Below, one piece after another: positions 456-29,826 of a DNA stretch of 64,000 nt. Numbering within the stretch: the stretch's first letter is position 1; each line of letters opens with the position of its first letter. Position numbers and translations under genes: made by a program. The notes under the pieces are model-generated. The model made no database searches, was not told the DNA's origin, and saw nothing but the letters and a program-made list of their open reading frames with translations. The stretch is from Paramacrobiotus metropolitanus (Eukaryota > Tardigrada > Eutardigrada > Parachela > Macrobiotidae): contig NW_026570223.1 of NCBI RefSeq assembly GCF_019649055.1, positions 248,001-312,000 on the forward strand. The letters run 5' to 3'.

Positions 456-2699
456 ATGGACGGCAAGAGAACGAGGAGGAAATTGAACGTCGATGCGAGT
501 ATGGTTGAAATTGACTATGCGTATACGATGAGACATTCGACGAAGATCTCCAGCGACCTGGACGCGCGCAACTCAATTCGATCTGTCTCGGGTTTCAGCG
601 GCGTAACCACCCAACACTCCCCTCGTTTGACTAAACAGCAGCAGCTGGAAGCAGGATTTTTAGAGCTGATTACCCATTTTCAGCTAGCTGAAATGAGCGC
701 GGCATGTGACGATGTGAGCGGTTTCCTGACGTGCGGCGCAATGTACCATTTCCCGATGGATTCACAGGACCTGCATTACGGGAAGTGGAACGATTTCCGT
801 CAGGGGAAACTGCAACAAGGCGAGTACGGGTTTCACGGACTGGCCACGAAATTTCCCCGTTGCCGGCGTGGCTACAGAACGGAGTTGGACTGCAAGTGTT
901 CCGTAAGTGATCACGTTATTTTGATGCCTCATGGTCACTATGGCTAACTACGTCCGATTGTAAGTCGTAATTCGTTTTCGAGTGCCTCCCATCGCTTTTT
1001 TCTGTGTTCCGATATCGGCCGTACGTGCGGTGTTTTTCATTGAGCATTCTCAGCATTCTGTATAATGCTATCATTACTGATAAGACAGTAGCTGCAGTAC
1101 ATACACCATAATGTTACAGACTTACAGTATAATTATAACTGAATGCCTCCGAGGAGGATTCTGTGGAATTATTGCCACTAATGCTTTGCAGTGCAGGAGA
1201 AGGTTGCGACAGACCGACCGAATGTCAACCGTAGCAAGTCTAACCGTGGTCTGCGGTTTCCGTGGCGGGCCAGCATCCAACTGGAGCGAGTTCCGGTTAA
1301 ATGCATTCTGACGGAGGCACAGCTGGCATTCATCAATCCGGACGCTCGCGGAAGTCCGACTATCCAGGTGAAAATCGCGCCCACCCGTGCCACCAACATG
1401 GACTTCGTCAACAAGAATCTGAGAAACATTAACGGTCAGAGTCAGACTAAGGATGAAATGGAAAAATGCTTTACGTTTTTGAATACACCTAAAAATAATC
1501 TGATTTTGAAGAAAATGTAAATCACGAATTTTTTTATTTTTACTACATAAGAAAATGTACTACATTAGAAGTTTATTAACTTCGTTTCATTACACTTTCT
1601 TTTAACCCCGTAGTTTCCTTTGCCTAAAATTGTATAAGACAAAATAATTTGTGTAAGCCAGTATAGATGTTAAAAAAATGAATTTTTCCAAAATGGTTTT
1701 GATTTAATTCTTACATTACGAAATTTTTATCCTGAACTCACAGGTCAGATCTACAAGGAGTGCTGCCGAGAGCTGGGTATCTTCCGCGAAGTCCATTGTT
1801 TCGTCACCATGCGTGTGCCGGTGCCGCGCTTCTTCGGGAAACTGCTGAAAGAATTCCGGCATACTATTCCCAAGAGTCCCCTACATGCACTTGCGGACGG
1901 GATGGTCTTGACAGGAACGGATAATGTGGTGCTGAAAACGCGACAGGGTGACGTGGAGATTAATCGGCAGATCCTCTGTAACACCTCTCCAACAGCGCGC
2001 GCCATCTTCGCAGTGGGAAAGCAGGGGAAAAGCAGTTCTTACGAACTGAACTATAGTAAGGCGGCCGTTGTAGCAGTGCTGAACGCGGCTGTCAATAAAC
2101 ACGAATCCCTGCCAGTTGATCCACGACGAGCGGCTCCGTTCTTCCTGTACGAAGTTACGAAATTGACGTTAAGTTGGGAGATTCCGCAGTTGAAACTGTG
2201 GACGCAGGTGGCGTTTGTGGAGCGTTTGTGCTATCCGGTCGCAAATTTGGATCAGATCCCCGTCCTGGACGCTCTTCAGGTCATTCTCGACCACGCTGAT
2301 CCCAATGAGGCAGGCAGTCGGATGATTGTTTGTGGACTTATCAGTGTGCTACGCATCCTGCATTCACCGACCGCGCGCTGGACGCTGAATGAGCTGCAGT
2401 GCATAATTGCACTGAAGCCGGCATTGTGGAAGAGCGTTATCCTGCCGATGCGGTTGGTGCCCGACACTTGCATTTTCGTTAAAACCTTGACTGGTAAAAC
2501 TTTCGCAGTCCCGGTTAATCTGGCTTATTGGGTGTATCACCTGAAATGCTGGGTTAAACACAATGCAGTAGGGATTCCGTTGGAGCAGCAGCGATTGATT
2601 TTTGAGGGCACACAGCTGAGCGGTAACGTTACCTTATCGGACTGCGGTATTACCACGGAGGCTACACTGGATCTTCTGCTGCGACTGATGAGCGGATGA
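456..2699 (+). pseudogene. BTB + ubiquitin-like fusion, copy 1 (frameshifted)
   Basis: There are three exons, placed by comparison with the intact copies: 456-902, 1192-1434 and 1744-2699. The start MDGK...KRK is conserved in every copy. Exon 1 is 447 nt where the intact copies have a length of 3n+1. Near 811-818 this copy has about five extra bases after the K-L-Q codons, so the rest of exon 1 reads out of frame (it should read ...[10 protein letters not shown]). Exons 2 and 3 are open in the family frame. Exon 3 encodes a BTB-like segment ([10 protein letters not shown]) followed by a helical region and a C-terminal ubiquitin-like domain. The protein end here is LMSG, not the RGC of the other copies. 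Either this is a recent pseudogene or exon 1 is spliced in a way I cannot see. The function of the family is unknown. Confidence 0.7.
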
Positions 2700-3563
2700 T
2701 GGTAAATGTGCAACAGAACTGGGAATGAAGCGTCAGGACCAGGTTGGAACCACCGGCTGCTATTGTGATGTTGTGATTATTTGCTGTCTGTTTTTTGCAC
2801 AGGTTTGCATAGGATGTTGCTTGTTTGCCCGTTTAAATCTATTTATGTAATTTACTGGATGATTCGCGTTCGTTTCCGGAGTCACGTTTTATGGATTCAA
2901 GTTTTTACGTTTATAGCATAATATATTGTAACTTTTCTCTAACCCCGTTAGAACAATTGTCGATGGTATTAAAGGTCTCTGTAACAACGTGTTGGGTTGT
3001 AAAGCAGTATAAAACGTTGATAAAATGAAAATTGTATTATGCAATGTATGCATAAAAATTGTGATAGCAGCTCTCTTCTTCTGCATCGACGACTTTGTTC
3101 TTTCCCAATCTTCGCTCGTTACTTTTCTGGTCAATGGTGAATCAGGGGCGTGCTTTATTACAATCCTGTATGAGGGACTTATACATTATTCAAAAATTAC
3201 TTGCTTTCATTAATTTTCTCGTCTTGAATTAGCAAGGTATCGTCACATCGTGACTATGGTCGCAGAACGCCTTTGTGCAATTTGATAGCACTTCCCGCTT
3301 CTGTGACTTTGTTGCGCCGCCGTGCGCATGCGGATTCGGTTCTTACTTCTTACCGAATCTTTCTTTACTCTTTGCTTTCTTAAAACGAGGTTGAGCCGAC
3401 GATGAGAAATGAATGCATTACGTAAGCCTGTACCCCATATTTCCGATTGGGTTTAAAATTACTCACGGCCAGTGGATCAAGGAAGTCTGCGACTCTGCAT
3501 AGACATATCGCTCGCATGAGAGTACGTACAATATAGTACTTACTGTATACGCAGCGCAAAACC

Positions 3564-3731
3564 AAGGCCTCGTCCCGAATTCAAAGCGAATCTCGTTGCG
3601 ATACAGCAACTCCACCTCGCGAGGTGGCTTCGCGTACCGTATCTGTAGGCGTGGCCACTGCATACAGCCACCTCGTGTGGTTGAGCAACCGTACCATAGC
3701 GGGATTCGCTTTGAATTCGGGACAAGGCCCA
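3564..3731. repeat. Imperfect inverted repeat, about 60-bp arms
   Basis: The left arm, beginning GTCCCGAATTCAAAGCGAAT at 3572, is matched by its reverse complement ending at 3723. The match continues outward through a GGCCT/AGGCC core and inward to a CCACCTCG...AGGTGG centre. The matching block-B spacer lacks this structure, so it is probably a small palindromic insertion. I found no target duplication. Confidence 0.65.
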
Positions 3732-3786
3732 AGAGTGCATTGAGACGTTTGTCTCCATAACATCGCGGGCGGCGGCTAGAGAATAC

Positions 3787-3849
3787 GACCGTGCTTTCAT
3801 GCACGTACGTGCTTTCAACGAAAACACGGACGTGCATGAAAGCACGGTC
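3787..3849. repeat. Perfect 20-bp hairpin, 23-nt loop
   Basis: Positions 3787-3806 are the exact reverse complement of 3830-3849 (stem begins GACCGTGCTTTC). The loop contains another copy of the GTGCTTTC motif. It lies about 225 bp upstream of the next gene's start codon. Confidence 0.75.
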
Positions 3850-4073
3850 ACGATTTTCACATCCACAGACTGGCTGCAATTCAACAAGCAACATCAGTTG
3901 TTACATCATCCTTAATTTTCGCTGCTGGTTCACGCTGTTTCACGGGGTGGGAATCCGTTGAGGCCTGTTACCATTGTCACAGCGCAATGCGATCAGACGG
4001 GGAACTGTAAGCAGGCCTGCATCTGCGTTCTTCCAGTTTTTTGTTTTGTTCGATTAGTTCTGAGGGCTACAAC

Positions 4074-6552
4074 ATGGACGGCCAGGGGACGAAGAGAAAA
4101 TTGGATGTCACTGAGGATGAATACTCCATCACACATTCGACGGAGAACGTCCACGGCCTGGACGAGCACATCGTCAGCCGCCATGTCTCCATTCAATCGT
4201 TCTCGGAAGTCGATGATGACAGCGTAACCGCACAGTCCTACCAGTACGCCCGTCAAAATGAACAGCGACAGTTGGAAACGGGATTTCTGGAAGCGCTTAC
4301 CCAGTGTCTGCTCGCTCAAATGGACGCGAAGGATGACAGTGGGATGAGTTTCTTAACGTGCCGCGCCTTCTATCATTTTCAAATGGATTTAGAAGATCTG
4401 CAGTCAGGGAAGTGGAACGATTTTGGTCAGGGGAAATTGCAGCGAGTCCGGGTGTCACAGACTAGCCACGAAATTTCCCCACTGCCAGCGTGGCTGGAGA
4501 ACGGCGTTGGACTGCAAGTGTTCTGTACGTGATCGTGTTAATTCGTTGACTTTCGCGCTTCGCGTAAAGGTTGCTCTAGTTGAAAACGACGTGGTTAAAT
4601 TATCAAATTATTTAACAGGCGCTGCGTGCTTGGCACTTACTTCCATGCATTTAATCCGAAAAACTTGAGCATTTTTTAATAAAATTTCCAGTGATTTTTT
4701 CGGTAAAATCGTTTGTTGGCTTTGCGCGAGGGTTAACATTTTATAGTTTTTTGAAACACTTGCTATGACCTGAAGCAATCTGTGTACGAGTAGTATGATT
4801 CGTAGCATCTGAAACGGTAATAAAACAGTACGACAGTGATCAGTCTTATGTCGTAGTGCGATGCGCCAGTCTTTGCGACCACGTGCGAAGATGATTTAAT
4901 TGAGTCGAGTCGCATAATAACAGGAGGTACCGGCAGCTAATCTATCTCTTTTAAAACTGCATTGTTGACTGTTTTGAGGAACTATTGTACACTGCTAATT
5001 TTGGTTCTGGTAACTACCTATGTATTCAACTGACATGATGCTTTGCAGTCCAGAGCAAGGTGGCGACAAACCGACCGCACACCTCCGATAGCGAGTCCAA
5101 GCATGGTTTCGAGATTCCATGGCAGGCCAAGATCCAACTGGAACAAATTCCGGACGAGTGCATCTTGATGGAGGTGCAGTTGGCGTTCATTAACCCGGAC
5201 GGTCACGGAAGTCCGACCGTCAAGGTGACAATGGCGCCACCCCATGCCACCTACATCAGCTTCGTCAACAACGTACTGAAGGAAATCAACGGTTAGAGTC
5301 AAACTGAGGTGGAAATCTGGGATATTTTAGCCTTGTTTTTGAAATGGGTTAAAATTTAGCTATACAAAATGTTTTGTTATAACAATTTACCCATTGGTTT
5401 TCATCAGATCTTTCTTTGGCCGCGGGGATTTTTTTTGCTTTGATTTGGGGCAATAAAAATTGATTTGAACATTTTATAAAACTACTCTGTAAATTAAAAT
5501 CAGTTCAATTAAGCAGCTTGAAGAACGCTTAGGTCAGTGTCGTTTTTAAGTTATTTAAATTCAACGTTAGAGATATTAACAGTGTGATTTGGACCCTACG
5601 AGTAGGTCAGACATATTCTGAGTGCTGCCATGAGCTGGGTATCTTCCGCCAAGCATACTGTTTCGTCACCATGCGTGTGCCGCTGCTGCGCTTCATATCG
5701 AAACTGCTGAAAAAGTTCCGGCGGACCATCCCGAACTGTCCGCCACTTACGGATGAGATAGCCTTGGCAGGAGCGGATAATGTGGTGCTGAAAACACGAC
5801 AGGGTAAAGTGGAGACGGATCGGCAGGTCCTGGTTGGTCTATCTCCAGCAGCGCGTGCCCTCTTCGCAGTGGGAAAACTCGGAAAAGTCAGTTCATTCGA
5901 AGTGGACTGTAGTAAAGTGGCCCTTATGACCGTGGTCGGCGCGGCTGTGCGTAAACACGAATCTCTGCCAGTTGACCCATGCCAAACGGCTCTGTGTTTT
6001 CTGTACGAGGTCATGAAGTTGGCGTTAAGTTGGGAGATTCCGCAGCTGTCACTGTGGACACAGGTGGCGTTTGTGGAGCGCTGGTGCCATCCGGTCGTCA
6101 ATCTGGAGCAGATCCCCGTCCTGGATGCTATCCGTGCCATCTGTGAATATGCCGATCCCGAGAAAGCGGGCAGTCGGATGATTGTGTGTGGGCTTATCAC
6201 TGCACTGCGCATTCTGCATTCACCGATCGCGTCCTGGACGCTGGATGAGATGCAGCGGTTAATTGCACCGTACCCGGCATTATGGGAGCACTTTCTCCCG
6301 CTGGCCCGGCTGGTTCTGGATACAAGCATTCTCGTTAAAACTGTGACTGGTCGCATCATCACGATCGCGGTTAACCTTGGCTTTTCGGCATATCAGGTGA
6401 AATGCTGTATCCAGGAGAAAGAAGGGATCCCCGTGGATCAGCAGCGACTTCTTTATGCCGGCAAACAGCTAAGCGACAACGTCACCTTAGCGGATTACGG
6501 TATTAAAGCGGAGGCTATCGTACATCTCGTAGTGAGAAAGCGCGGATGCTGA
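4074..6552 (+). CDS. BTB-like + ubiquitin-like fusion protein, copy 2 (intact)
   Basis: Exons 4074-4524, 5049-5291 and 5606-6552 have GT/AG borders and compatible phases (451 + 243 + 947 nt = 547 codons, 546 residues). Residues 1-230, from exons 1 and 2, form a domain I do not recognise; it is conserved in all copies (LETGFLE..., [20 protein letters not shown]). Exon 3 opens with GQTYSECC, then a segment that looks like a BTB/POZ fold ([11 protein letters not shown]...[12 protein letters not shown]), then helices that could be BACK-like. The last 75 residues are clearly ubiquitin-like ([32 protein letters not shown]). The terminus is RKRGC, so the conjugating Gly-Gly of ubiquitin is absent. 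BTB proteins often act as cullin-3 adaptors, but no such role is shown here. The ubiquitin call is firm; the BTB call is moderate. The donor of intron 1 is GTACGT. Confidence 0.82.
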
Positions 6553-7584: not shown

Positions 7585-8223
7585 ATGGACGGCGACGGCA
7601 AGGGAACGAAGAGAAAACTGAATGTCGTGGAGAGCTGGAAAGAGGATTTTTGGAATTGCTGAGCCATTGTCAACTGGCCAACATGAACGCGACGGAGGAC
7701 AATGAGATGGGTTTCTTGACGTGCCGCGCCATGTATACCTTCCAGATGGATTTGCAGAAGCTGAAGACCGCGGCGTGGAATGACTCTCGTCTGGGGAAAC
7801 TGCAGCGAGTGCGGTTGAAGTGGACCGGCCACGAAATCACCCCATTGCCAGCGTGGTTGGAGAACGGCGTTGGATTGGAAGGGTTCTGTAAGTGACCTTT
7901 GTATATCGTCGTGTGATGCGCCTGTCCGTGAGTTGTGAGTCCGTGAATTTATTTGAGTCGCATCCTAAATTCCTAATTGAGTCTATGACTAGAAATTCCC
8001 TCAGCCTATCTCATTGACCTTTTTCAGCAAATTGCGCCGAACAATTTTGACTGATGAAGGATTGTTTTACAATGTTCCTTTTGGGTTCTGCTAAGGCATC
8101 CCCATGGATCAGCAGCGACTGATGTTCGGCGGCAGACAGCTGAGCGACAATGCTACCTTATTGGACTGCGGGATTACCAGCGGGGCTGCAGTACATCTTC
8201 TCTACCGATTTAGAGGATTCTAA
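7585..8223 (+). pseudogene. BTB/Ub fusion, copy 3, double-deletion remnant
   Basis: The start [16 protein letters not shown] is the same as in the copy at 22,573. A deletion then joins GTGGAG directly to AGCTGG, removing about 130 bp of exon 1 and causing a stop after about 25 codons. The rest of exon 1 (7,640-7,888) is present, with the usual TTCT|GTAAGT donor. Intron 1 then runs to 8,092, where GTTCTGCTA joins straight to the ubiquitin-like part of exon 3 ([13 protein letters not shown]...). Exon 2, the BTB-like part and the first third of the ubiquitin-like domain are missing. The remaining C-terminus ends in YRFRGF, with Phe in place of the final Cys. Confidence 0.85.
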
Positions 8224-8310
8224 AACCGTTGGTGAAATTGGATTTGGAAGGATCCAGGTGGAACTGTAGGTGGTTTTTAGGGTGGATAAATGGACATACG
8301 ATTTTTTCTC

Positions 8311-8765: not shown

Positions 8766-9514
8766 AACTATTACATGCTGATACGTTCATTATACAAAAA
8801 GTCGTAAAAACGTTTTATTCACAATTCACATTGTGGATGGATAATGGATTGCATCGTTTATAGTACTGTTCGTGTTGAAGTTTTCCTTGTACACAAAACC
8901 CGGAAAACTTGTACCGATCCGGCAATACAGAAAATACAACTATACGTCATACAATATCGTTGATACCATAAAGCAATGTCTACATCGCCGGCTGCTCCGT
9001 GGGAGCAATAATGAGCACCTTGATGCACACATACGGCGGCGCGTTGACGACATAGGCAATGACATCGGCAATGTCCTGCGCCTCCAGGAGCTTCATGCCG
9101 GAGCCGGCGAGCGCCAGCTTTTTGACATTCTCCTCACAAACCCATCGGTTGCCGAAGTCGGTCTGCACGCCACCCGGGCTAATGCTCTGTTAAAATGTCA
9201 GACGCTATAAACGTCGATGGAACAATAATTATTATGTTGGAGAACTCGGGACTGACCGTTACGCGGATCTTTTTGGAAATTTCCTTCACTTCACGGTACA
9301 GCGCCTCCGTCAGAGCGATGACCATGTGTTTGGTGGCCGAGTAAAAGTGGGCGGTGGCCCACGGAGGCACCGCGTGTCCAGCCATGCAGCCCCATGCTGT
9401 ACATACAGAGTTGCATTATTTACCGTATAATTATGATGCGGCATTAGCAGTCTTGCCGATTGCTTATAAGAACGCTTTGTCTGGTCAGTAACAATGATTG
9501 AAAACCAAAGCTTT

Positions 9515-11511
9515 TCGACCGAAGCGTAGCGAAAGTCTTCTATGTTCAAGGATAATGAAAAATGTGGTGTCTGTGCGTCGGTCACCGCCACCAAATGCAC
9601 ATATGCGCGGCGGTATGTGATACCTGACGCACATATGCACGCTGGCCGTATATACTCAAGGCAAATGTAATTCATGGTGTCTGTGCGTCGGTCACCGCCA
9701 TCAAATGCACATATGCTCGGTGGTATGTGTTACCTGACGGCGTCAGGTAACACTGCTGACGCACATATGCACGATGCTGACGCACATATGCACGCTGGCC
9801 GTATATACTCAAGGCAAATGTAATTCATGGTGTCTGTGCGTCGGTCACCGCCATCAAATGCACATATGCGCGGTGGTATGTGTTACCTGATGCACATATG
9901 CACGCTGGCCGTATATACTCAAGGCGAATGTAATTCATGGTGTCTGTGCGTCGGTCACCGAAACCAAATGCACATATGCGCGGTGGTATGTGTTACCTGA
10001 CGCACATATGCACGATGGCCGTATATACTCAAGGCAAATGTAATTCATGGTGTCTGTGCGTCGGTCACCGCCACCAAATGCACATATGCGCGTTGGTATG
10101 TGTTACCTGACGCACATATGCACGCTGGCCGTATATACTCAAGACAAATGTAATTCATGGTGTCTGTGCGTCGGTCACCGCCACCAAATGCACATATGCG
10201 CGGCGGTATGTGTTACCTGACGCACATATGCACGCTGGCCGAATATACTCAAGGCAAATGTAATTCATGGTGTCTGTGCGTCGGTCACCGCCACCAAATG
10301 CACATACGAGCGGTGGTATGTGTTATTTGACGCACATATGCACGCTGGCCGTATATACTGTACTCGCGGCACATGTAACTCGTGGTGTCTGTACGTCGGT
10401 CACCACCGCGAAAGGCAAATATGCATGGTGATGTTTGCAGGCCGGATGCGCACATATACACTTTAGCCGTATGCATTGGCCGGTGGTCATCTCCCGATAT
10501 GATCAAAAGATTACTTATTGCTTTTCCTTTTATGTAAAAATGGCAAAAGAGCGCTACAAAAGCGTCTAAGATTGCGTTTTTGCAATTCACAAGCGACGAG
10601 TTTCGTTATCAATAATGGAATCATTAGTCGATGGTGACAGGGACAATATACCGTTTGTCTGCTGAAAATTTTTGAATTAGTCTCCTAGCTGGGTGTTGCA
10701 GACGCTGTCCAGTAGACCAGTACCATAATACGGCTGCCTTACACTCCTCTCATGAGTTATGTCACCCACTTCGGCCTCATGACATTTGCGCAACCTAACA
10801 AAAACCAAGAAACCGAAGAATACGTCACTCGACCGACCGGCAATCGTGCATTTCCATTTCCTCACAGGCATTTTTGATGTGCCTCAAAATAGCAAACACA
10901 ATAAACCCGTGCACTTAAAAACCAAAACCAATTAATATTCCGGTATTAAGGAGTTCCACCTAGAAAGTTGTCTAATTAGAATCGTAATAGGTCAGCATTG
11001 CTCGGCGCAATTTCGTGGAAATGGTAATCCTCCGGCTAGGTTGGTGTCACCAGTTTTTTGACATGATGGACCTATTCTTGGATTCTGCTTTTCAGTCTTG
11101 GCGTTTTATAAACCGCCACGATCGTTAACAAATCCAACACTTTACACCGTATTCAGAAGATAATTCTACCATTGACTACTCTGCATATGTACATATTGTG
11201 GCAGCGACCTCCCATAGCTCTGCATGAACCGGCATAAATTATTCCACAAGGGCAGAAGAAATTAAGATTTTTTACAATTCAAAACATGTATTGAAAACAT
11301 TCACTTACCTGCAAAATTTTACATAAATGCCTACCGGGGCAAAAGGCCGAGATTTCACTTGTCACTCTACTAAAAATTCTACCAAACGGGGTGAGATTAT
11401 TAAATAATCGAGGAGGATTGCCTACAGAAAAAGGGTTGCCAATCACTCTACGCATAGTCCTGTTACGCTTCGGTCTTGCAGTGCCCGCAAATAGCGAGTG
11501 CACTTTCCTAG
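9515..11511 (+). mobile_element. Helitron/Helentron-like non-autonomous element, family 2, copy 1
   Basis: It is 1,997 bp. The limits come from comparing it with 13,600-16,035: identity begins at TCGACCGAAGCGTAGCGAA and ends at CACTTTCCTAG. The 5' terminal GACCGAAGCGT is repeated in inverted form as ACGCTTCGGTC about 36-47 bp before the 3' end. This asymmetric arrangement is described for Helitron2/Helentron elements. A short AGTGC...GCACT stem lies seven bases before the end. There is no target duplication: comparing intron 3 of the intact SDR paralog suggests a simple insertion in a T-rich site. No Rep/helicase is encoded. It holds a 110-bp minisatellite and about 1.05 kb of non-repetitive DNA. 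Confidence 0.65.
9563..10462. repeat. 110-bp minisatellite inside family-2 element (about 7-8 units)
   Basis: Successive starts of TGGTGTCTGTGCGTCGG are 110 bp apart (9828 to 9938, for example). Each unit holds CACATATGCGCGG and TGACGCACATATGCACG palindromic motifs. One unit is enlarged to about 155 bp by an inverted GACGGCGTCAGG segment, and the same odd unit is present in copy 2. Short open frames in the array are by-products. Confidence 0.92.
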
Positions 11512-12343
11512 TATAGACAGTGTTTTCAAGTACCTGTTGATGTTGATAATATGACCGTCGGTGATCTGGTCCTTGGTTATCAATCGCAGCGCTTCACGGG
11601 CGCAGATAGGCAATCCCATAACGTTTACCTGAAGGGAAAATTTTGAAATTTCTTTTCGTGCAGTTCTTATTGAAAACACCTATGTAGCCTCGCATACAAG
11701 AGTATTTTCTATAATTGTATTTTATCATTTTTATGAACGGATCACACCCTGTACATCTATCATCTCGCGCCACTGGTCCGCGCTGCCGGTTACTAGCGTA
11801 TCGGGTTTGGCCATGCCGGCATTATTCACAAGGACGTCCACGTGTTTGTGGGTCTTCTAGATCTTCGCAAACATGCGCTTGATGTCCTCCTCTTTGGTGA
11901 TGTCGCACTTGATGGCGCGGACGGTACCGGAGCCTTTGGGGAGAGTGTTGTTTAACGCCTACAACGTATGCGCTAAATTTAACTATGAGCATGTGTTCCT
12001 TCCCTCCCAAAAGAACATGAATCAACGCCGTCACTATACAAATAAGATATTTCGTACTTATACTTGAACGTTTTATCGTTTACCTCGATTTTTTCCAGGT
12101 TTCGCGCGCATCCGATGACATTCATTCCCTGGCGTGCCAGCGTTTCCGCCGCGGCCAGTCCGATACCGGAGGATGCTCCCGTCACCAGCGCTGTGCGAAT
12201 TCGCCAACGATCCATTTTTGTGGAAGAAAATTGCAGAGCCTGCGCAAAGAACTCAGGCGATTAGCACAACGTGGTAACTGGCGTGCAGTTGGAGAATAAA
12301 GTTATTCCACTGAATGGAACATTCTTCAGTCAGTCGACCGGAT

Positions 12344-12453
12344 TAATATGATTTTTGACGGCACGCAGCTGAGCGATAACGTTACCTTATCGGACTGCGG
12401 TATTACCACGAAGGCTACTCCTATCTTCTCCTGAGACTGAAGAGCGGATGATG
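12344..12453 (+). pseudogene. 3'-end relic of BTB/Ub exon 3 at duplication junction
   Basis: The sequence matches the last 110 bp of exon 3 of copy 1 ([20 protein letters not shown], ending in an AGCGGATGATGG context like copy 1). It starts abruptly after a GTCGACCGG that belongs to the 5' flank of the SDR gene. At 31,160 the same SDR flank continues into different sequence. It is therefore the breakpoint fragment of a tandem duplication and has no promoter or start of its own. Confidence 0.88.
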
Positions 12454-13599
12454 GTAAATAAAGAGCACTATGAAGCGTCAGCACGAGGTTGGAACCAGCG
12501 GTTACATTTGTGAGGTTGGGATTATTTTCTATCAATTTTTTTGCGCAGGTTTGCACTGATGCTGCTTTTTGCCCGTTTTAAATTTCTCTCTGTAAATTGC
12601 TGAAGGATTCGCATTCGTTTCCGGAGGGAAGTTTTATGGATTCCAGTTTTTACGTTTATGGCATAATGCAATTCAGTGGCGTCGTGTATAACCACGAGAT
12701 TGTTACCGATGTCTTTGTCACAACGTGTTGGGTTGTAAAGCAGTATAAAACGTTGATAAAATGAAAACGCATTATGTAATTATGAAATTGTGATAGCAGC
12801 TTTTTTGTTCTGCCTCGACGACTCTGTTCTTAACTTCTTACTGATTCTTGGCTCGTCCTCTTACTTTTGTGGTCAAGGGTGAATCACGGGCATGCTTAAT
12901 TATAATCCTTTATGAGGAAAATAGAACTTGTACATTATTCAAAAATTACTTACATACTTTCATTCCTTGTCTTGAATTAACAAGGTATGTTGCACTGTTG
13001 CAGAGCGCCAGTGTACAATTTGAAGCACTTCCCGCTGCTGTGATAGCCTGGTTGTGCCGCCATGCATGTGGATTCGTTTATACCGAATCTTTGCTTTTTG
13101 CTCTCTCAAAACGAGCTTGAGCCGACGATGCGAAATGAAAGGCCAAGCATAAGGTCAAGCAAAAAGAAAGATTACGTAAAACTGTACCCCATATTTCCGG
13201 TTGGGTTGGATGGATGAAAATCGTAAGTAATGAAAGCCCGTACGTGATCAGATCCTCTAACCGCCGCCCGATGGAGACAAGCGTCTGATCTCACTCTTGA
13301 TTTCAAGCGTCTGATCTCACTCTTGATTTTGCGCTGCGTACTCACAAGTCACAATCAGTATAGGCGCTAAATCATTTCACGAGCGATATTTCTAGACTTC
13401 TACCCTGATGCCAACAATTCACCAAGCAACACCATCCTTAATTTTTTACTTGCTGGTTCAAGTTTCACGCGCTTTCACGAGAGTGGGAATCCGTTGAGGC
13501 CTGTTACCCTTGTCACAGCGCATTGTGACGAAACGGGGGACTGTATCTGTGACTGTAAGCAGGCCTACCTGCATCTGCGGGACTTTTAACCGTAAGTTG
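12454..13599. other. Duplicate of the copy 1 - copy 2 spacer
   Basis: No gene seen. It aligns with 2,700-4,000 but lacks the two inverted repeats found there. The last 60 bp before the Helitron-like insertion (GGGGACTGTATCTGTGACTG...) match the upstream region of copy 2. A 24-bp direct repeat (CAAGCGTCTGATCTCACTC...) lies at about 13,279-13,330. Confidence 0.55.
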
Positions 13600-16035: not shown

Positions 16036-16159
16036 TATTGTAAGTTTGTAACCGGTCCGCAAGCTGTATCGATGGAATCGTGCAGTCTGACTACAGCCGT
16101 CTCTAAAATTGTGTCCTTCCAATTTCTTGTTTGTTCGATTAGTTGCTGAGCGCTACAAC

Positions 16160-19100
16160 ATGGACGGCAAGGGGACGAAGAGAAAATTGGATGTTTTTGA
16201 GGATGATTACTCCATCACGCATTCGACGGAGAACGTCGACGGCCTGGATGAGCGGAGCGTCAGCCGCCATGTCTCCATTCAACCGTTCCCGGAAGTCGAC
16301 GACGACAGCACAACCGCACCGTCCTCTTCCCTATTGAATGAACAGCTACAGCTGGAAACAGGATTTTTAGAAGCGCTTACCCATTGCCAGCTCGCTCAAA
16401 TGGACGCGAAGGATGACAGGGTGATGGGTTTCTTGACGTGCCGTGCCATGTACCATTTTCAAATGGATTTAGAAGATCTGCAGTCCGGGAAGTGGAACGA
16501 TTTTGGCCAGGGGAAACTGCAGCGCGTACGGGTGTCACAGACTGGCCACGAAATTTCTCCATTGCCAGCGTGGCTGGAGAACGGCGTTGGACTGCACGTG
16601 TTCTGTAAGTGATCACTTTATGGCTTATGTCGTACGTAGTGTGATGCGCCTGTCTGTTGCGACCACATCCGAATGTGAAACGTCTGAACTAGTTGCGTCT
16701 AGTGACGAGTCGCATGATAGTTGAATCTACGGCTGGATTTGGCTGCAGCTAATATCTCTTTAAACAGACTACGATTAGCACTGTTGACTGTTGAGGGACT
16801 GGTGTTGTACACTTCTAATTGTGGTTCTGTTAAGTACTAGGTAAGTATTCAACTGACATACTGAGATGCTACTTGTGCTTTGCAGTTCAGACCAAGGTGG
16901 CGACAAACCGACCGCACGCCTCCGGCAAAAAGTCTAAGCGTGGTTTTGAGATTCCATGGCACGCCAAGATCCAAATGGAACAAGTTCCGGACGAGTGCAT
17001 CCTGACGGAGGTGCAGTTGGCGTTCATTAATCCGGACGAGCGTGGAAGCCCTACCGTCCAGGTGACAATGGCGGCCTCCCGTGCCAACGACATGAACTTC
17101 GTCAACAACATACTGAAGGAAATCAACGGTTAGAGTCAAACTGAGGTTGAAATCTGAGACATTTTTAGCGTTTTTAAATGCCTTACAATTTACCGGGTGG
17201 CTGAGCAAAATGGCGGTCTGATTCAAGATGATGCGCTGGATCCGTCTGTTGCTTGATTGACGTCGTCTTAGGTTCATTCGAAAGAGTAACGCTTTTAACA
17301 TAAAACAGTTAAGTGCAGCTAAGATTTTCCTAAGTCTGGACGTTTTTTAAGATTTTTTTGAAAAACTGGGTGGGTTTAGAGGCTGTCCTGGAAGGGAAAA
17401 TTTGAAAATACCCATTTCTCAACCAAAAATTGCTGCTAATCAGCTAAGTAGAAAACTTTTTTTCGGGTTACTGTTTCGGATAGAGGGGTTCTTCCTTGTT
17501 TTTTACTGTATGGCACTGCAATATTCTAGCAACGGTGTTCGGCCAGCACACGGAATAACTGAGACTCTGCACGAGTAATTCTCATGAAATCCGCAGGAAG
17601 GATTTTTGAAATCGAATTCTTGATCAACGCTTCGAAAAGTTGTCTGGTTCAATCTTGTTTCTGGAAAGGCAATGTGTTAACTACATTTTGAAATAAAACC
17701 CGACATTTCTTGTTGCTTCTTTACACGCAGCCAGAAATTTTAACGAAAAATGGTCATAAAAATCAAATTAAAAACCGGCATTTTTTGGGAAAGTCACAAA
17801 GTGCGCTGACCGCATAACTCGTCCAGCGCATGCAATATGTCAACAACTGCTTTTTTATTGAAAGAAGGTGTGTTTCTCTAAACAGAGCCGGCAAAGATAT
17901 TCAAAAAGTCCAAACTGAAAAGAAGTGCCACGAGATTCTAAGTTTGGAGAGCTGGGACACGAAAAATTTGCACACGACCTTGGTTTGCGCCACTGCAAGC
18001 GATCACGGCTTACGCTTTCCAAAAACGTTTTGTTGATTCTGATAGCCAATAAAATTCTCTATCAAACGAGTCTTAACAATTTACAGTCTGACCACAGGTT
18101 CACGAGAAACAAACTGAATAATTAGACCGCCATTTTTTTCAGCCACCCGGTAGCTATCAAAAAGCCTGGTTTATTATTTTACCCATTGGTTTTCATCAAA
18201 TCTCTCTTTAATCGCGGGTTTTTTCGCTTAATTTTTGGGGCAGTACATATTGATTTGCGTATTTAAAGAACTGATTTGCAAATGTAAATGACTTCCTTCC
18301 ACTTGAAGGACGCGTAGGTCTGTTGCATTCTGAAATGACTTTAATGCAATGCTGGAAATGATGACTGTTTAATTTGGACCCTATCCTAGGCCAGACATAT
18401 TCCGAATGCTGCCAGGAGCTGGGCATCTTCCGCCAAGCCTACTGTTTTGTCACCATGCGTGTGCCGCTGCTGCGCTTCATATCGGAACTGCTGCAAAAAT
18501 TCCGGCAGACCATTCCGAACTGTCCCCGGGCGGACGAAATTATCTTGGCAGGAATAGATAATGTAGTCCTCAAAACGCGACAGGGTAAAGTGGAGACAAA
18601 TCGGCAGATCCTGGTTGGCTTCTCTCCAACGACGCGTGCCCTCTTCGCAGCGGGAAAACACGGAAAAGTCAGTTCTTTCGAACTTGACTACAGTAAGGCG
18701 GCTGTTGTGACCGTGATCGGCGCGGCTGTGCATAAACACGAATCTCTACTAATTGATCCACGCCGAGCCACTCCGTTCTTTCTGTACGAGGCCATGAAGT
18801 TGGCGTTGAGTTGGGAGATTCCGCATCTGACACTGTGGACGCAGGTAGCGTTTGTGGAGCGTTTATGCCATCCGGTTGTCAATCTAGAGCAGGTTCCCGT
18901 TCTGGATGCTGTCCAGGTCATTCTCGACCACGCAGATCCCCAGGAGGTTGGCAGTCGGATGATTGTGTGTGCACTGGTTAGTGTGCTGCGCATCTTGCAT
19001 TCACCGACCGCGTCTTGGACGCTGGACGAGCTGCAACAGTTGATTGCACCGAAGCCGGCATTGTGGGAGTATGTTCTTCAGCCTACGCGGTTGGCGCCGG

Positions 19101-19333
19101 ATAGCAGCATTTTCATTAAGACTTTGACTGGCAAGGTCTTCACGGTCGTGGTTAATCTGGCCTATTGGGTTTACCAGATGAAATGCTGTATCCAGGAGAA
19201 AGAAGGGATTCCCATGGATCAGCAGCGGATTATATTTGCCGACAAACAGCTGAGCGACAATGTTACCTTAGCGGATTACGGTATTAAAACGCGGACTACA
19301 GTGCATCTTGTCTTGAGAATGCGGGGATGCTGA
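16160..19333 (+). CDS. BTB-like + ubiquitin-like fusion protein, copy 4 (intact)
   Basis: Exons 16160-16604, 16886-17128 and 18390-19333 (445 + 243 + 944 nt = 544 codons, 543 residues) have matching phases: the codon across intron 1 is T|TT and across intron 2 is G|GC. I chose the start [12 protein letters not shown] because every copy shares it; an upstream in-frame ATG at 16,109 lies close to the transposon. The unrecognised N-terminal domain occupies about residues 1-230. A BTB-like segment begins near 284 ([15 protein letters not shown]), followed by helices up to about 465. A ubiquitin-like domain fills 469-543 ([36 protein letters not shown]). The lysine equivalent to ubiquitin K48 is kept. 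The end is RMRGC instead of RLRGG. Intron 2 carries a MITE. It is the block-B counterpart of the gene at 4,074. Confidence 0.83.
17193..18150. mobile_element. TA-flanked MITE with about 28-bp terminal inverted repeats
   Basis: The termini are CCGGGTGGCTGA...ATGGCGGTCT on the left and the reverse complement (AGACCGCCAT...CAGCCACCCGG) on the right, with TA on each side at 17191-17192 and 18151-18152. The same intron of the copy at 4,074 reads ATTTAGCTAT with no insert, an empty site that fits a TA target. No transposase frame is present across its 958 bp. The TA target suggests Tc1/mariner mobilisation; that assignment is inferred. Confidence 0.8.
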
Positions 19334-21897: not shown

Positions 21898-21900
21898 TTA

Positions 21901-22572: not shown

Positions 22573-23771
22573 ATGGACGGCGACGGCAAGGGAACGAAGA
22601 GAAAACTGAATGTCGTGGAGAACGATTACTCGATCCGCCATTCGACGGAGAACGCCCGTGACTTGGACCAGCATGGCCGCAGTTACTCCGTTCGATCGTT
22701 CTCGGAACTCGGCGGCGTACACGCACAGCCCTCCGCCCGCCTGACTGAATAGCGACAGCTGGAAAGAGGATTTTTGGAACTGCTGACCCATTGTCAACTG
22801 GCCAACATAAACGCGACGGATGACAATGAGATGGGTCTCCTGACGTGCCGCGCCATGTATACCTTCCAGATGGATTTGCAGAAGTTGAAGACCGCGGCGT
22901 GGAATGACTATCGTCTGGGGAAACTGCAGCGAGTGCGGGTGAAGTGGACCGGCCACGAAATCACCCCATTGCCAGCGTGGTTGGAAAACGGCGTTGGATT
23001 GCAAGTGTTCTGTAAGTGACCTTTCGTATATCGTCGTGTGATGCGCCTGTCCGTGATTTAGTTGAGTTGAGTCGCATTCTAATTGAGTCTATGAGTAGAA
23101 ATTTCCGCAGCCTACCTCCTTGGCCTTTTTCAGCAAATTGCGCCTAGCAATTTTGACTGATGAGGGACTGTTGTTCAATGTTCCTTTTGGGTTCTGCTAT
23201 ACAGTTGAAGTGCTGCAGTCAGCAATGTTACTGATGCTTTGCAAATTGCAGTTCAGAAGAAGGTGGCGACAAAACGACCACACTCTTCCGGTAAAAAGTC
23301 TAAGCGAGGTTTTGAGATTCCATGGCAGGCCAAGATCCAGTTGGAGCAAATCCCGGACAAATGCATCTTGACGGAGGTGCAGCTGGCGTTCATTAATCCG
23401 GATGGTCACGGCAGCCCGGCTGTTCAGGTGAAATTGGCGGACACCCGTGCCACCAACATGGACTTCATCAATAACATACTGAAGGAAATCAACGGTCAGA
23501 ATGAAAGCTACGCTTGGAAATCAAACAAGTTTTGGCCGTTTTGAGAATCTTTTAAAATTTGCATTAAAATGTATATGAAGCCTAAGAAATGCTACTATTT
23601 GCCAGTTGCCTCTTGTCCAATCTCCCACGAATTTCCTTGCCTAAAACTGGAATAATACAAATTTGTTGAAACTTGAAGTATACTTAAAAAAATCAAATTT
23701 GTTTTCATCAAGCGAGCGAGCGAGCGTTTTTAATCTGCGGTGCGACATGCGGAGAGCTGGGTCCCCGGGGT

Positions 23772-23847
23772 CCAGGGGCGAAGCCCCTGGCCGGGGTTTG
23801 GGGCGGAGCCCCAACAAGCAGGGGGTGCGGGGGGCGCAGCCCCCCGC
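23772..23847. other. Three consecutive hairpins with GNA triloops
   Basis: Three perfect stems follow one another: 23772-23790 (CCAGGGGC, loop GAA), 23798-23814 (TTGGGGC, loop GGA) and 23827-23847 (GCGGGGGGC, loop GCA). Each loop is closed by C-G. The d(GCGAAGC) class of C-GNA-G mini-hairpin is known to be unusually stable in DNA. The same three occur in copy B. Their position at the 5' end of an element presumed to move by rolling circle suggests a structural role, which is inference. Confidence 0.85.
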
Positions 23848-23974
23848 TGAAGCAGTTGAGAAGGTAGTAAAAAAATCGAAAAACTAACCGGGTTAGTTTT
23901 GACGGACCTAGTGCAGTAAATGCATATGAGATCGTAAATTTGGACCCGGTACACTCATACAGACCGGCCCGGGT

Positions 23975-25552
23975 GGAGCGCTTTTGAGGAACCGACATGC
24001 GGGGAACCCCCGTGGCATTTTTCTCGAACCCGCCATACATATAGTATGGAGGGTCCGTTTTTTAGATCCCGGTCCAGGAATTTTGCCCGCCCGGTTGGTT
24101 CGTTTTTGAGGTACCGACATGCGGGAAACCACCGGGGCATTTTTCTCGAACCCGCCATACATATAGTATGGAGGGTCCGTTTTTTAGATCCCGGTCCGGG
24201 AATTTTGCCCGCCCGGTTCCGTTTTTTAGATCCCGGTACGGAAATTTTGCCCGCCCAGTTCCGTTTTTTAGATCCCGGTCCGGAAATTTTGCCCGCCCCG
24301 GTTGGTGCGTTTTTGGGGAACCGACATGCAGAGAACCACCATTTTTCACGAACCCGCCATAAATTGTCTATGGAGGGCCCGTTTTTTTGGACCCGGTCCA
24401 GGAATTTTCCCCCCCGGTTGGTTCGTTTTTGAGGAACCGACATGCGGGGAACCACCGGGGCATTTTTCACGAACCCGCCATACATATAGTATGGAGGGTC
24501 CGTTTTTTAGATCCCGGTCCGGGAATTTTGCCCGCCCGGTTCCGTTTTTTAGATCCCGGTCCGGAAATTTTGCCCGCCCCGGTTGGTGCGTTCTTGGGGA
24601 ACCGACATTCGGAAAACCACCGGGGCATTTTTCACGAACGCGCCATACATATAGTATGGAGTGTCCGTTTCTTAGTTCAGGTCCGGGAATTTTGCCCGCC
24701 CCGGTTGGTGCGTTTTTGGGGAACCGACATGCGGGGAACCACCTGGGCATTTTTCACGAACCCGCCATACATATAGTATGGAGGGTCCGTTTTTTAGATC
24801 CCGGTCCGGGAATTTTGTGCGCCCCGGTTGGTGCGTTTTTGGGGAACCGACATGCGGGGAACCACCTGGGCATTTTTCACGAACCCGCCATACATACAGT
24901 ATGGAGGGTCCGTTTTTTAGATCCCGGTCCGGGAATTTTGCCCGCCCAGTTCCGTTTTTTAGATCCCGGTCCGGAAATTTTGCCCGCCCCGGTTGGTGCG
25001 TTCTTGGGGAACCGACATTCGGAAAACCACCGGGGCATTTTTCACGAACGCGCCATACATATAGTATGGAGGGTCCGTTTTTTAGATCCCGGTCCGGGAA
25101 TTTTGCCCGCCCTGGGTGGATCGTTTTGGAGGAACCGACGTGCGGGGAAACCACCGGGGCATTTTTCACGAACCCGCCATACAAATAGTATGGATGGTCC
25201 GTTTTCTAGATCCCGGTCCGGGAATTTTACCCGCCCTGGGTGGATCTTTTTTGAGGAACCGACATGCGGGAAACCACCGGGCAGTTTTCACGAACCCGCC
25301 ATACAATTAGTATGGAGGGTCCGCTTTTTAGGTCCCAGTCAGGGAATTCTGCCCGCCCCGTTGGTGCGTTTTTGAGGAACCGACATGCGAAAAACTTCCG
25401 GGGCAGTTTTCACGAATTCGCCATACAAATAGTATGGAGGGTCCGTTTTTTAAACCCCGGTCCGGGAATTTTGCCCGCCCTGGGTGGATCGTTTTTGAGG
25501 AACCGACATGCCGGGAACCACCGGGGCATTTTTCACGAACCCGCCATACAAA
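23975..25552. repeat. 123-bp minisatellite of family-1 element, short array (about 13 units)
   Basis: Each unit contains GGAACCGACATGCGGGGAAC, ACGAACCCGCCATAC and TTTTAGATCCCGGTCCGGGA. Some units carry an internal duplication of about 53 bp (three GATCCCGGT blocks in a row at 24,185-24,290). The open frame at 24,302-25,375 is a by-product of a period divisible by three. Confidence 0.93.
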
Positions 25553-25984
25553 CAGCGGAATTTTGTAACATGATTTACACATATAAGGCTTTGTTTGAGC
25601 AAATGTTGGAAATACTCGAAGGTCTTCAACCAGTATATAACTTTGTAGACCAGTTGAGTTAGGTCATTCAAGTTAAACGTCACCATAAGGTCATAACGGG
25701 TAACATTACTTTGAAACAATGACGTAGCAAACCATGCTAATCGAAGTCAGGAACCGGTACAATCGTTAGAAATTTCACCTACATTTGCACTTACTTTAAG
25801 GATCAACTGAGTCGCATTCATTTTGCAATTACTCATGGTAACGCGTTACCAGCTTTTACCACTCTAATTAAGCGTTACCAATAATAAATATTACGCTACC
25901 ATAACTATAACATGTTACCGTAACCGTCTCAGTTTCTGTCACGGTAAGGGTTACCGTAACTATTGTTAACGGATTGCCGTCACC

Positions 25985-26460
25985 CTTGCTGTTGAAACTG
26001 AAAGCATTGCCAAAGGCAACGCCGAGCTGCGGCCCAAGCAAGCGCAGCGTAGCGAGCGGAGCAGCAAGTAAAACCAAAGGGTTCGATTTTTCTTTTTTCC
26101 AAAAAAACATTTTTAACGGTGTAGTTCAAACTTTCCATTATCGCGATGACACAGAAGCGAACAGCCGTTTCTACGGAAACCGAAGGCGGAGCCGAAGGCG
26201 ACGCCGAGCTGTGGCGTGAGCAAGCGCAGCGCAGCGAGCGGAGCAGCAAGTAAAACCAAATAATTATTTAATCAATATTATATCCTTTGCTTCGGAAATG
26301 GTTTTGTTAACGGTTCATTTTAAACGTTCACTTTTCGTGATGATACTGTACAGTAGCGAGTAACTGTTTCTAAGGAAATCGAAAGCGGAGCCGAAGCGAC
26401 TCTGAGCGGCGGCGAGAGTAAGCGCAGTGAAGCGAGCAAAGCAGCAAGTAGAACGGAACG
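25985..26460. repeat. About 180-bp tandem repeat in family-1 element (3 units)
   Basis: Units end in GAGCGGAGCAGCAAGTAAAACC and begin with an AT-rich TTTCTTTTTTCC...AACGGTGTAG segment. Starts lie about 182-197 bp apart. Copy B has four units at 38,100-38,730. The G/C part contains further GGC-GGA-GCC type hairpins. Confidence 0.85.
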
Positions 26461-28638
26461 ACTTTTTTTTCGCTTTCTTTCAGCCTTTGTTAAAAAAAAG
26501 ATTAAACAGAATTTAAAAGATAACTCTATCGAAGTTCAAATTTGAGTTCTTGTAAATAAATTGCGAATTTTTTGAGAAATGATCAAAGTTTCTTATTTTG
26601 AGCTACACCATTAGTTTTCGACTTTTAATATGAGCTCATTTATAGTTTCATATCCATTTAATTTGAAAAATAATAAGATAAACCTAATTGATAAACATTT
26701 CTGTTTCTTTACGGGGAAAAATAATAGAGATCCATGCCAAGGGTTTTTATTATTACACAAAGCGGTATACATGACAGGTGAATTTCGGCGTGTTGCTTTA
26801 CAAGCGTCGCATTTAATAGTCACTTTTCACGGAAACAGAAAATTTGATAAAACTTTCTTTTCTGGATTATTGCCACCAAGCACTGAATGAAGTACTGAAA
26901 CGATAAATCGTTTTCGCAGCATATTAGTGGAAAATTATTGGACACTGAAATTTGAAATCTCCGCCGGTGTGTTTCAGAACCAGTGCGGTTCCATCGGCAT
27001 TAGCGTTTCCTTTTGTAAATCGTTGTGCAATTGCATCCGCAGCAAAAAAAAGCTCTAAATTGCGGATGCATTTAAAAAATATCTCCAGTAAGTAATTTAT
27101 CGTTTTTATCTTCGCAAGCGGTTGCTTTTAGATTTCAGTCGTGAAAACGACTGATCTGAACTGACGATGGCCGGGATTGGGGTTCTTAAACGGGCTTGAG
27201 CACTTACCAACCAATATAAACGGACACGCTGAGCGTGTCCGGTTAACTGTATAAGTCTTATCGGTTTTGGGAATAAAATATCGGTACTGGGAATGAGAAA
27301 CTGAAGAAATGAGATAAGTATCCCAATGTAAAGGATTTAGTGCGGCGGAGAACAAGCGGAATGGTGGGCAATGTGCGGTAAAGCATTAGCAGTGCCCGCG
27401 CCGTAGTTGCTGAAGGAATCGTTTTAAAATTAATATACCGTATCGGCTCGATTCCGTAAAACGTCATAAAAATGATGGTATCGCGTCGGCATCGCAGCGG
27501 TGGCAAAAACAAACTGATATCTGAGCACATCTGTTGATAACTTAGCATTTGCAAAAGATACAGAAAGCTAGGTAGACTCTCAACTACTTGGTTAGGTTGC
27601 TGTCTCACCGTGCCAAGTCTTTTACAACAAAAAAACTTACATGCTCGCTCGCTTGCACTAAGGGCGGTTACGACCTTCTATACTAGTACTAGGCCAGACC
27701 TACTCGGAGTGCTGCCAAGAGCTGGGTATTTTCCGGGAGGCCTATTGCTTCATCACCATGCATGTTCCGCTGCGGCGCTTTTTGGGGCAGGTGCTGAAAG
27801 AATTCCGGCATACCATTCCGGATTGCCCTCCTCTCGCGGACGGAGTTTCCTTGTCAGGATCGGATAATGTGCTGATGAAGATGCGACAGGATGAAATGGA
27901 CATCAATCGGCAGATTCTGATTGGTCTGTCCCCAAAAGTGCGTGCAATCTTCGAAGTGGGAGAGCATGGACAGGTCGATATCTACACACTCAGCATTAGT
28001 AAGGCGGCCTTTATGGCAGCTGTGGGCGCGGCTATGCACAAACACGAATCTCTGCCAGTTGACCCAACCCAAACGGCTCTGTGTTTCCTGTACGAGGTCA
28101 TGAAGATGGCGTTGAGTTGGGAGATTCCGCAGCTGAAACTGTGGATGCAGGTGGCGTTTGTGGAGCGCTTATGCCATCCGGCCGTTAATCTGGAACAGAT
28201 CCCCGTCCTGGATGCTGTCCGTGTCATCCGCGACCACGCCGATCCCCGGGAGGTGGGCAGTCGGATGATTATGTGTGGGCTCATCAGTGCGCTGCGCATC
28301 CTGCATTCGCCGACCGCGTCCTGGACGCTGGATGAAGTGCACCAGTTAATTGCGCCAAAGCGGACATTATGGATGAGTTTTCTCCAGCCGGCGCGGTTCG
28401 TGCCGGATATCAGCGTGTTCGTAAATCCTTGAATGGACAAATTTTGACAGTCCCGGTTAATCTGAATTACGGGATATACCAGTTGAAATGCCGGATTCAG
28501 GATATTGAAGGCATCCCCACGGATCAGTGTTCGGTGGTGTTCCGCGGCGCACAGCTGAGTGACAATACTACCTTATTGGACTGTGGGATTACCAACGGGG
28601 CTACAGTAAGTCTTGTCTTCCGATTCAGAGGATGCTGA

Positions 28639-28949: not shown

Positions 28950-28953
28950 TTAA

Positions 28954-29633: not shown

Positions 29634-29826
29634 TTAATTATACAAAAAGTCGTAAAAACGTTTTACAGTATTAACATTGTGGATGGATAATGGACTGCAT
29701 GCTGTATAATATTGTTCGGGTTGAAGTTTTCCTTGTACACAAAATCCGGAAAATTAATACCAATCTAGCAATACAGAAAATACAACTATGCGTCATACAA
29801 CAAGTGTCGATACCATAAAGCAAGGT

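What the first reader, a model, noticed from the sequence alone, without database searches (positions are those of the whole stretch)
456..28638. BTB-like + ubiquitin-like fusion family ending in Gly-Cys
Five related loci encode an unrecognised N-terminal domain, a BTB-like segment and a C-terminal ubiquitin fold. The sequence shows RGC at the very end of three independent copies (6,552, 19,333, 28,638), MSG in one and RGF in a remnant. Ubiquitin's Gly-Gly is needed for E1 activation, so a conserved Gly-Cys suggests this domain is not conjugated but works as a docking module, or that the terminal Cys is modified. Several intact copies argue for selected function. I know of no described family with this exact order.
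Basis: partly seen in the sequence, partly recalled or inferred. Interest (0 to 1): 0.8.

Follow-up and report, generated by a model that had tools for sequence, protein, structure and literature searches.

The report
Ubiquitin-tailed gene family ending Gly-Cys
A eukaryotic genome of unnamed origin carries about three dozen related gene copies, many of whose proteins end in a built-in ubiquitin with cysteine in place of its last glycine; this should block normal attachment, and the cysteine has often been kept while its surroundings changed, which hints that it does a job.

Summary
The window holds five family loci plus a ubiquitin scrap. Two genes are intact (4,074 and 16,160; three exons, 546 and 543 aa). 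The 456 copy has a frameshift. The copy ending at 28,638 has an in-frame stop and a frameshift. The 7,632 locus is a remnant. Only ubiquitin-fold Pfam families pass their cut-offs. The BTB-like block fails Pfam and PDB sequence searches but aligns to BTB by HMM-HMM (score 34.1; best of 293 shuffles 22.3), without the CUL3 phi-x-E motif. Genome-wide I modelled 36 loci. Of 22 intact ubiquitin-bearing copies 14 end in -GC. dN/dS is 0.25-0.40 in 14 pairs. Over clades A and B, Gly75 and Cys76 rank 7th and 12th most conserved of 76 ubiquitin positions, while 70-74 change fast; in clade A alone Cys76 ranks only 31st. Two deep members, without -GC, join the module's first exon to an Hsp70 and to a kinase. 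Best reading: a non-conjugatable built-in ubiquitin (natural G76C) on a divergent BTB-like scaffold, with a functional terminal thiol. The thiol's partner is inferred, not shown.

The parts
16160..16604 (+). gene 16160 exon 1: N-terminal domain, starts [12 protein letters not shown]
   Evidence: tblastn/spliced model, donor TCT|GTAAGT
16886..17128 (+). gene 16160 exon 2: rest of N-terminal domain
   Evidence: acceptor CTTTGCAG, donor ACG|GTTAGA
18390..19333 (+). gene 16160 exon 3: end of N-terminal domain (TYSECC), BTB-like block, ubiquitin domain 19103-19330 ending RGC, stop
4074..4524 (+). gene 4074 exon 1
5049..5291 (+). gene 4074 exon 2
5606..6552 (+). gene 4074 exon 3, BTB-like block and ubiquitin domain ending RGC, stop
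456..902 (+). copy 456 exon 1, frameshift near 817
1192..1434 (+). copy 456 exon 2
1744..2699 (+). copy 456 exon 3, ubiquitin domain ends MSG
7632..7886 (+). remnant: part of exon 1
8095..8223 (+). remnant: C-terminal part of ubiquitin domain ending RGF
12333..12419 (+). scrap of ubiquitin domain
22573..23011 (+). copy 22573 exon 1, one in-frame TAG
23252..23494 (+). copy 22573 exon 2
27693..28638 (+). copy 22573 exon 3 after a 4.2 kb intron; frameshift near 28422; ubiquitin domain ends RGC

Best explanation
A multidomain protein family expanded in this genome. The core module is an undescribed N-terminal domain, a divergent BTB-like block, and a C-terminal ubiquitin domain in which Gly76 is Cys in most copies of the two main clades. 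Two deep members carry an Hsp70 or a protein kinase in front. Shown by computation: the anatomy, purifying selection, and preferential retention of Gly75-Cys76 over its neighbours. Inferred: the built-in ubiquitin is not conjugated through its own tail. It ties the rest of the protein to a partner, and its terminal thiol makes or exchanges a thiol bond with a partner cysteine. Candidates are the catalytic Cys of a ubiquitin-handling enzyme, as engineered Ub(G76C) does in the test tube, or a Cys in the family's own N-terminal domain (Cys237).
For: Ubiquitin domain by Pfam, phmmer and fold. dN/dS 0.25-0.40 over the whole protein in 14 pairs, 5 of them with a broken member; ubiquitin part alone 0.17-0.64. 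14 of 22 intact and 8 of 11 broken ubiquitin-bearing copies end exactly in -GC. In 29 rows of the two main clades Gly75 changes 3 times and Cys76 4 times on the tree, against a mean of 9.5 for 76 positions and 9-14 for positions 70-74. Codons differ: GGA/GGC/GGT; TGC mostly in clade A, TGT in all clade B rows with Cys. Of the six rows with only 16-20 of 76 identities to ubiquitin, five still end -GC. The polyubiquitin genes looked at in the same genome end -RLRGG and stop, so the tail is not a copy of a local polyubiquitin cap. Engineered Ub(G76C) forms disulfides with catalytic Cys of E2, HECT E3 and some DUBs (PMC10619426, PMC4734694, passages). Cys237 is the only one of 69 columns invariant in the 14 intact -GC copies that is changed in 6 of 8 intact copies without -GC.
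Against: No transcript, protein or second species was available. In clade A alone Cys76 is ordinary (3 changes, rank 31 of 76, mean 4.5), while Gly75 is high (rank 12); in clade B they rank 8 and 11. The Cys237 coupling rests on 3-4 independent pairs (sign test p 0.25), and C3_75k and C56 do not follow it. Eight intact copies lack -GC, including both headed members and the C83:218k/225k pair, so the tail is not essential to every member. Cytosol is reducing (recalled), and DUB reactivity with Ub(G76C) varies widely. The BTB-like block lacks phi-x-E in the loop examined in 34 of 35 rows. My only model of that block is unusable (pLDDT 35).
Confidence: 0.4

Rival explanations
1. Ordinary built-in ubiquitin-like domain: the ubiquitin surface docks to ubiquitin-binding domains or the proteasome, and the tail is simply non-conjugatable; Cys has no role.
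For: Many proteins have internal UBLs without Gly-Gly (recalled). In clade A position 44 is I/V/L in 16 of 17 rows and position 70 V/I/L in 15 of 17; position 44 stays I/V/L/M in 11 of 12 clade B rows too. In clade A alone Cys76 is not unusually conserved (rank 31 of 76).
Against: In the C158/C37 rows His68 has become Glu or Arg and Val70 mostly Tyr, Phe or His, yet Gly-Cys stays in most. Over both clades Cys76 changes less than half as often as positions 70-74.
Confidence: 0.3
2. Intramolecular latch: terminal Cys76 pairs (disulfide or shared metal) with Cys237 of the SECC motif, closing the protein; opening exposes the BTB-like block or the ubiquitin.
For: All 14 intact -GC copies keep Cys237; C37_359k (SECS, tail VSR) and C63_583k (SECG, tail DCN) lost both against their sisters; six of eight intact copies without -GC lack it.
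Against: Few independent events, not significant; C3_75k lost the tail but keeps Cys237; C56 has a Cys there in an uncertain alignment; no structure.
Confidence: 0.12
3. Precursor tail: a protease removes the terminal Cys to expose a single-Gly end (as UFM1 or GGC-ended ubiquitin precursors), and the whole protein is then conjugated.
For: Some ubiquitin precursors end GG-C and UFM1 ends VG-SC (recalled).
Against: 0 of 33 tails hold a Gly-Gly; cutting would leave a Gly75 end one residue short of ubiquitin; a removable cap need not be Cys.
Confidence: 0.07
4. Terminal Cys is a lipid site or caps a C-terminal degron (-RG/-GG).
For: UBL3/MUB uses C-terminal Cys residues (PMC6158211 passages); KLHDC3-EloB/C has been solved with G75Q and G75R ubiquitin (PDB titles 9d1z, 9d1y).
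Against: No CaaX, CC or CXC end in the 33 tails; any residue would cap a degron.
Confidence: 0.06
5. Decaying multigene family: Gly-Cys shared by recent descent or gene conversion, no function.
For: 13 of 35 long copies carry a frameshift or stop or lack the ubiquitin part in my models.
Against: dN/dS 0.25-0.40; Gly-Cys kept across bodies as low as 16 of 76 identities with ubiquitin, with different codons.
Confidence: 0.05

Closest known systems
Ubiquitin / polyubiquitin
   Same: Same fold; 42 of 76 residues identical in gene 16160; TM 0.96 to 1ubq
   Different: Fused at the C-terminus of a larger protein; Gly76 is Cys in most copies of the two main clades; no Gly-Gly; in six rows only 16-20 of 76 identities
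Engineered Ub(G76C) (e.g. PDB 5BNB, Ube2S-Ub)
   Same: Same substitution at the same place; phmmer aligns residue 312 (the last Cys of the query) to position 76 in the row that lists 5bnb
   Different: A laboratory reagent; here it is natural and part of a multidomain protein
UBL3/MUB
   Same: Ubiquitin fold with functional C-terminal cysteines; reported disulfide-type modification (PMC6158211, passages)
   Different: Free small protein with CaaX end; here no CaaX and a fused scaffold
SPOP-type BTB (MATH-BTB) adaptors
   Same: Order N-terminal domain then BTB-like block; HMM-HMM match over 94 columns. BTB domains are very numerous in the same genome; the one I searched against the PDB matched SPOP best
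   Different: No Pfam BTB hit, no phi-x-E in the loop, N-terminal domain not MATH by HMM-HMM (weak 3-row MATH profile), extra ubiquitin domain
Elongin C + Elongin B
   Same: A BTB-like fold working with a ubiquitin fold (recalled)
   Different: Profile of three Skp1_POZ hits gives only 15.7-15.8, P 0.2-0.3; one chain here; the ubiquitin part matches ubiquitin itself

Membership tests
BTB/POZ domain | match to the BTB profile (Pfam PF00651) | tested here: not met
   No BTB hit in 20 proteins (14 of them hold the block) nor in 14 members at E up to 10 (HMMER filters apply)
BTB/POZ domain | remote homology to BTB by HMM-HMM | tested here: met
   Score 34.1, P 6e-4, colinear over 94 columns, against 36 BTB hits from 34 loci of this genome; reversed 17.6 and 17.4; 0 of 293 column shuffles reach it (7 of 300 failed), best 22.3. 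First try with fewer rows P 0.003-0.004. hhalign's own 'probability' is only 28%
BTB/POZ domain | BTB fold | tested here: inconclusive
   Model of exon 3 from 5 window rows has pLDDT 35
CUL3 adaptor | phi-x-E motif in the loop after the conserved Phe (motif recalled) | tested here: not met
   Absent in about ten residues after the Phe in 34 of 35 rows; the one hit is in a broken copy. A V-Y-E or similar at the start of the next strand in several rows lies outside the stretch tested
Ubiquitin domain | PF00240 match and beta-grasp fold | tested here: met
Conjugatable ubiquitin-like modifier | C-terminal Gly-Gly | tested here: not met
   0 of 33 tails hold Gly-Gly at 75-76
UBL3/MUB | CaaX C-terminus | tested here: not met
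   0 of 33 tails have Cys four from the end
MATH-BTB | MATH domain in front of BTB | tested here: not met
   No Pfam MATH hit for the window exon 1 and exon 2 frames given; HMM-HMM score 13.5, P 0.26, with a thin 3-row MATH profile
CUL3 adaptor | binds CUL3 | not testable with these tools
   needs protein

The most novel reading that the evidence does not exclude
Nature has built what biochemists use as a trap: a ubiquitin with G76C, fused to a BTB-like scaffold, that captures catalytic cysteines of E2, HECT/RBR or deubiquitinating enzymes by disulfide or thiol exchange. It would be a reversible, redox-gated, E1-independent way to recruit or inhibit ubiquitin enzymes, expanded to dozens of paralogues.
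Probability: 0.15. Interest if true: 0.88.

Novelty: new variant of a known kind. Interest (0 to 1): 0.6.

Why it matters
Ubiquitin's last glycine is what E1 needs. A large gene family that keeps a ubiquitin but has Cys there in most copies of its two main clades, with a variable head (none, Hsp70, kinase), would be a new way of wiring proteins into the ubiquitin system. It makes a direct test possible, because the same substitution in engineered ubiquitin has known chemistry.

Tried and rejected
Structure of exon 3 from five window sequences: pLDDT 35, discarded, no fold search run on it. Profile of the middle region against PDB sequences: three hits, best E 0.32, unrelated. Relatives in viral contigs and in bacterial and archaeal genomes: none confirmed. 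Profile of three Skp1_POZ hits: no match. MATH: no match with a thin profile. Polyubiquitin cap as origin of the Cys: the local genes looked at end -RLRGG or -KLPGG and stop. Cys237-tail coupling: kept only as a lead, since its sign test cannot reach significance. Scan for a basic cluster in the first 60 residues: 8 of 36 rows, not general. Organism: not established. 'Not met in print' rests, which are listings of an open-licence library. On checking this report I corrected the count of low-identity tails, the statement that the whole Ile44 patch is lost (position 44 stays aliphatic in most rows), and added the clade A rank of Cys76; for these I lowered the best explanation from 0.42 to 0.40 and the novel case from 0.16 to 0.15, and raised the plain-UBL rival from 0.28 to 0.30.
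Full report
WHAT IS THERE. The window lies at G000:C3:248001-312000 of a 170 Mb genome of unnamed origin. Splicing by phase-1 GT-AG introns at the same two places joins the scattered frames into one gene model. Gene 16160 has exons 16160-16604, 16886-17128 and 18390-19333 and codes for 543 residues. Gene 4074 has the same structure and codes for 546 residues. Copy 456 has a frameshift near 817 and ends MSG. Copy 22573 has a TAG in exon 1, a 4.2 kb second intron and a frameshift near 28422, and ends RGC. The 7632 locus is part of exon 1 plus a ubiquitin piece ending RGF, and there is a ubiquitin scrap at 12333.

DOMAINS. The C-terminal 76 residues are ubiquitin: Pfam PF00240 at E 1.8e-14 to 1.2e-21 in the four longer window copies. 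Gene 16160 shares 42 of 76 identities with ubiquitin. Its domain model has pLDDT 90 and TM 0.96 to 1ubq. Apart from ubiquitin-fold families (ubiquitin, Rad60-SLD) no Pfam family passes its cut-off in the module proteins scanned. The middle block, with part of the N-terminal domain, has no PDB sequence hit better than E 0.32 as a profile. HMM-HMM against 36 BTB hits from 34 loci of the same genome gives score 34.1 and P 6e-4 over 94 colinear columns. Reversed profiles give 17.6 and 17.4, and the best of 293 column shuffles is 22.3 (7 of 300 failed). I therefore call it BTB-like, with hhalign's own probability only 28%. The CUL3-type phi-x-E motif is absent from the loop examined in 34 of 35 rows. 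The N-terminal domain is not MATH by a thin 3-row profile. The model of exon 3 was unusable (pLDDT 35).

THE FAMILY IN THE GENOME. The exon 3 query gives 81 matches, some of them other ubiquitin genes, and the exon 1 query 37. Searches with two distant members showed no locus outside those already seen. I modelled 36 loci with a spliced aligner written here. One (7632) was dropped from the tree as too short. Two of the other 35 (C228, C83_214k) showed no ubiquitin part. That leaves 33 ubiquitin-bearing rows: 22 without frameshift or stop and 11 broken. Weak points among the 22: three (C158_111k, C56, C158_127k) lack part of the 5' end; C75 has an odd first splice junction; C63_593k reaches its tail only through a 6.4 kb model intron. 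The tree has two main clades, A (18 rows, one without ubiquitin) and B (12 rows), and three outlying lineages of 5 rows. dN/dS for 14 pairs is 0.25-0.40 over the whole protein and 0.17-0.64 for the ubiquitin part; 5 pairs include a broken copy. It is 0.32 for 4074 against 16160 with dS 0.38.

THE TAIL. 14 of 22 intact and 8 of 11 broken copies end exactly in Gly-Cys. One more ends -VC and one -GCQ. Eight intact copies do not end in -GC: C3_75k, C63_286k, C158_148k, C37_359k, C56, C63_583k, C83_218k and C83_225k. In the 29 rows of clades A and B that have a ubiquitin part, Gly75 changes 3 times and Cys76 4 times on the tree (ranks 7 and 12 of 76). The mean is 9.5 changes, and positions 70 to 74 change 12, 11, 9, 14 and 11 times. 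By clade the ranks of Gly75 and Cys76 are 12 and 31 in A, 11 and 8 in B, so the case for Cys76 comes from clade B and from the comparison of the two clades. Codons vary (GGA, GGC, GGT; TGC or TGT). In six C158/C37 rows the ubiquitin body falls to 16-20 of 76 identities; His68 has become Glu in all six and Val70 Tyr, Phe or His, though position 44 stays aliphatic. Five of the six still end TGC, YGC or VGC. The local polyubiquitin genes looked at end -RLRGG, or -KLPGG in a diverged one, and stop. I take this as evidence that the dipeptide, not just the fold, is kept by selection. It is computed evidence from one genome.

HEADS. At C63:283.6k an Hsp70 lies in one open frame with the module's first exon, and a 94-base phase-1 intron leads to the rest (HSP70 PF00012 E 3e-84 and 1e-27 for the two pieces; HSC70 ATPase domain as best PDB match). 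At C56:296.3k a protein kinase lies in one open frame with the module's first exon (Pkinase E 2e-27); an N-lobe-like stretch further upstream scores below Pfam's cut-off (E 0.005). The splice to the rest of the module about 2 kb downstream is inferred, not modelled. Both members lack the -GC end.

HOW IT MAY WORK. Shown by computation: anatomy, selection and retained Gly-Cys. From established knowledge: E1 activation needs the terminal glycine, so conjugation through this tail is unlikely. From papers (passages only): Ub(G76C) forms disulfides with catalytic cysteines of E2, HECT and some DUB enzymes, with variable DUB reactivity (PMC10619426; PMC4734694), and UBL3 is reported to act through C-terminal cysteines (PMC6158211). 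Inference: the terminal thiol bonds with a partner cysteine and thereby ties the scaffold to a ubiquitin-system partner. A second possibility is an internal latch. Cys237 of the SECC motif is the only one of 69 columns invariant in the 14 intact -GC copies that is altered in six of the eight intact copies without -GC, with C3_75k and C56 as exceptions. With 3-4 independent pairs the sign test gives p 0.25, so this is a lead only.

KNOWN OR NEW. Searches of the held open-licence library for BTB plus ubiquitin-domain fusions, Hsp70 plus ubiquitin-domain or BTB fusions, and tardigrade BTB or ubiquitin expansions listed no paper that by title or abstract start describes such a family (listings only). 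The 2005 survey of BTB proteins (PMC1257465, passages) has no occurrence of 'ubiquitin-like' or 'ubiquitin domain' in its main text. No relative was confirmed in viral contigs or prokaryote genomes. Other eukaryote genomes could not be searched, so how widespread it is remains open.

Noticed in passing
G000:C63:283612-287128 (L041, L010): An Hsp70 (ATPase and substrate-binding beta part) in one open frame with the first exon of this N-terminal domain / BTB-like / ubiquitin module.
   Followed up: partly
G000:C56:295002-300723 (L040, L015): A protein kinase (HSDLKPKNIL loop; DLD in place of DFG) in one open frame with the first exon of the same module; splice to the rest inferred.
   Followed up: partly
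genome-wide: Very many BTB domains: 150 scored matches of 1040 candidates, against only 6 MATH_2 matches.
   Followed up: partly
window 39167-47939: 72 copies of a 123-base GC-rich tandem unit; a similar unit on the other strand, about 122 bases, lies inside the second intron of copy 22573 (24016-25494).
   Followed up: no
window 28950-29637: Directly adjacent 344-base inverted arms, 91% complementary, just downstream of the copy ending at 28638.
   Followed up: no
window 9514-10406 and 13599-14931: 110-base tandem repeats in two blocks inside a duplicated segment with 4.1-4.5 kb spacing.
   Followed up: no
G000:C3:1401000-1402700 (L044): A diverged polyubiquitin-like gene with units ending RLRGG and KLPGG.
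   Followed up: no
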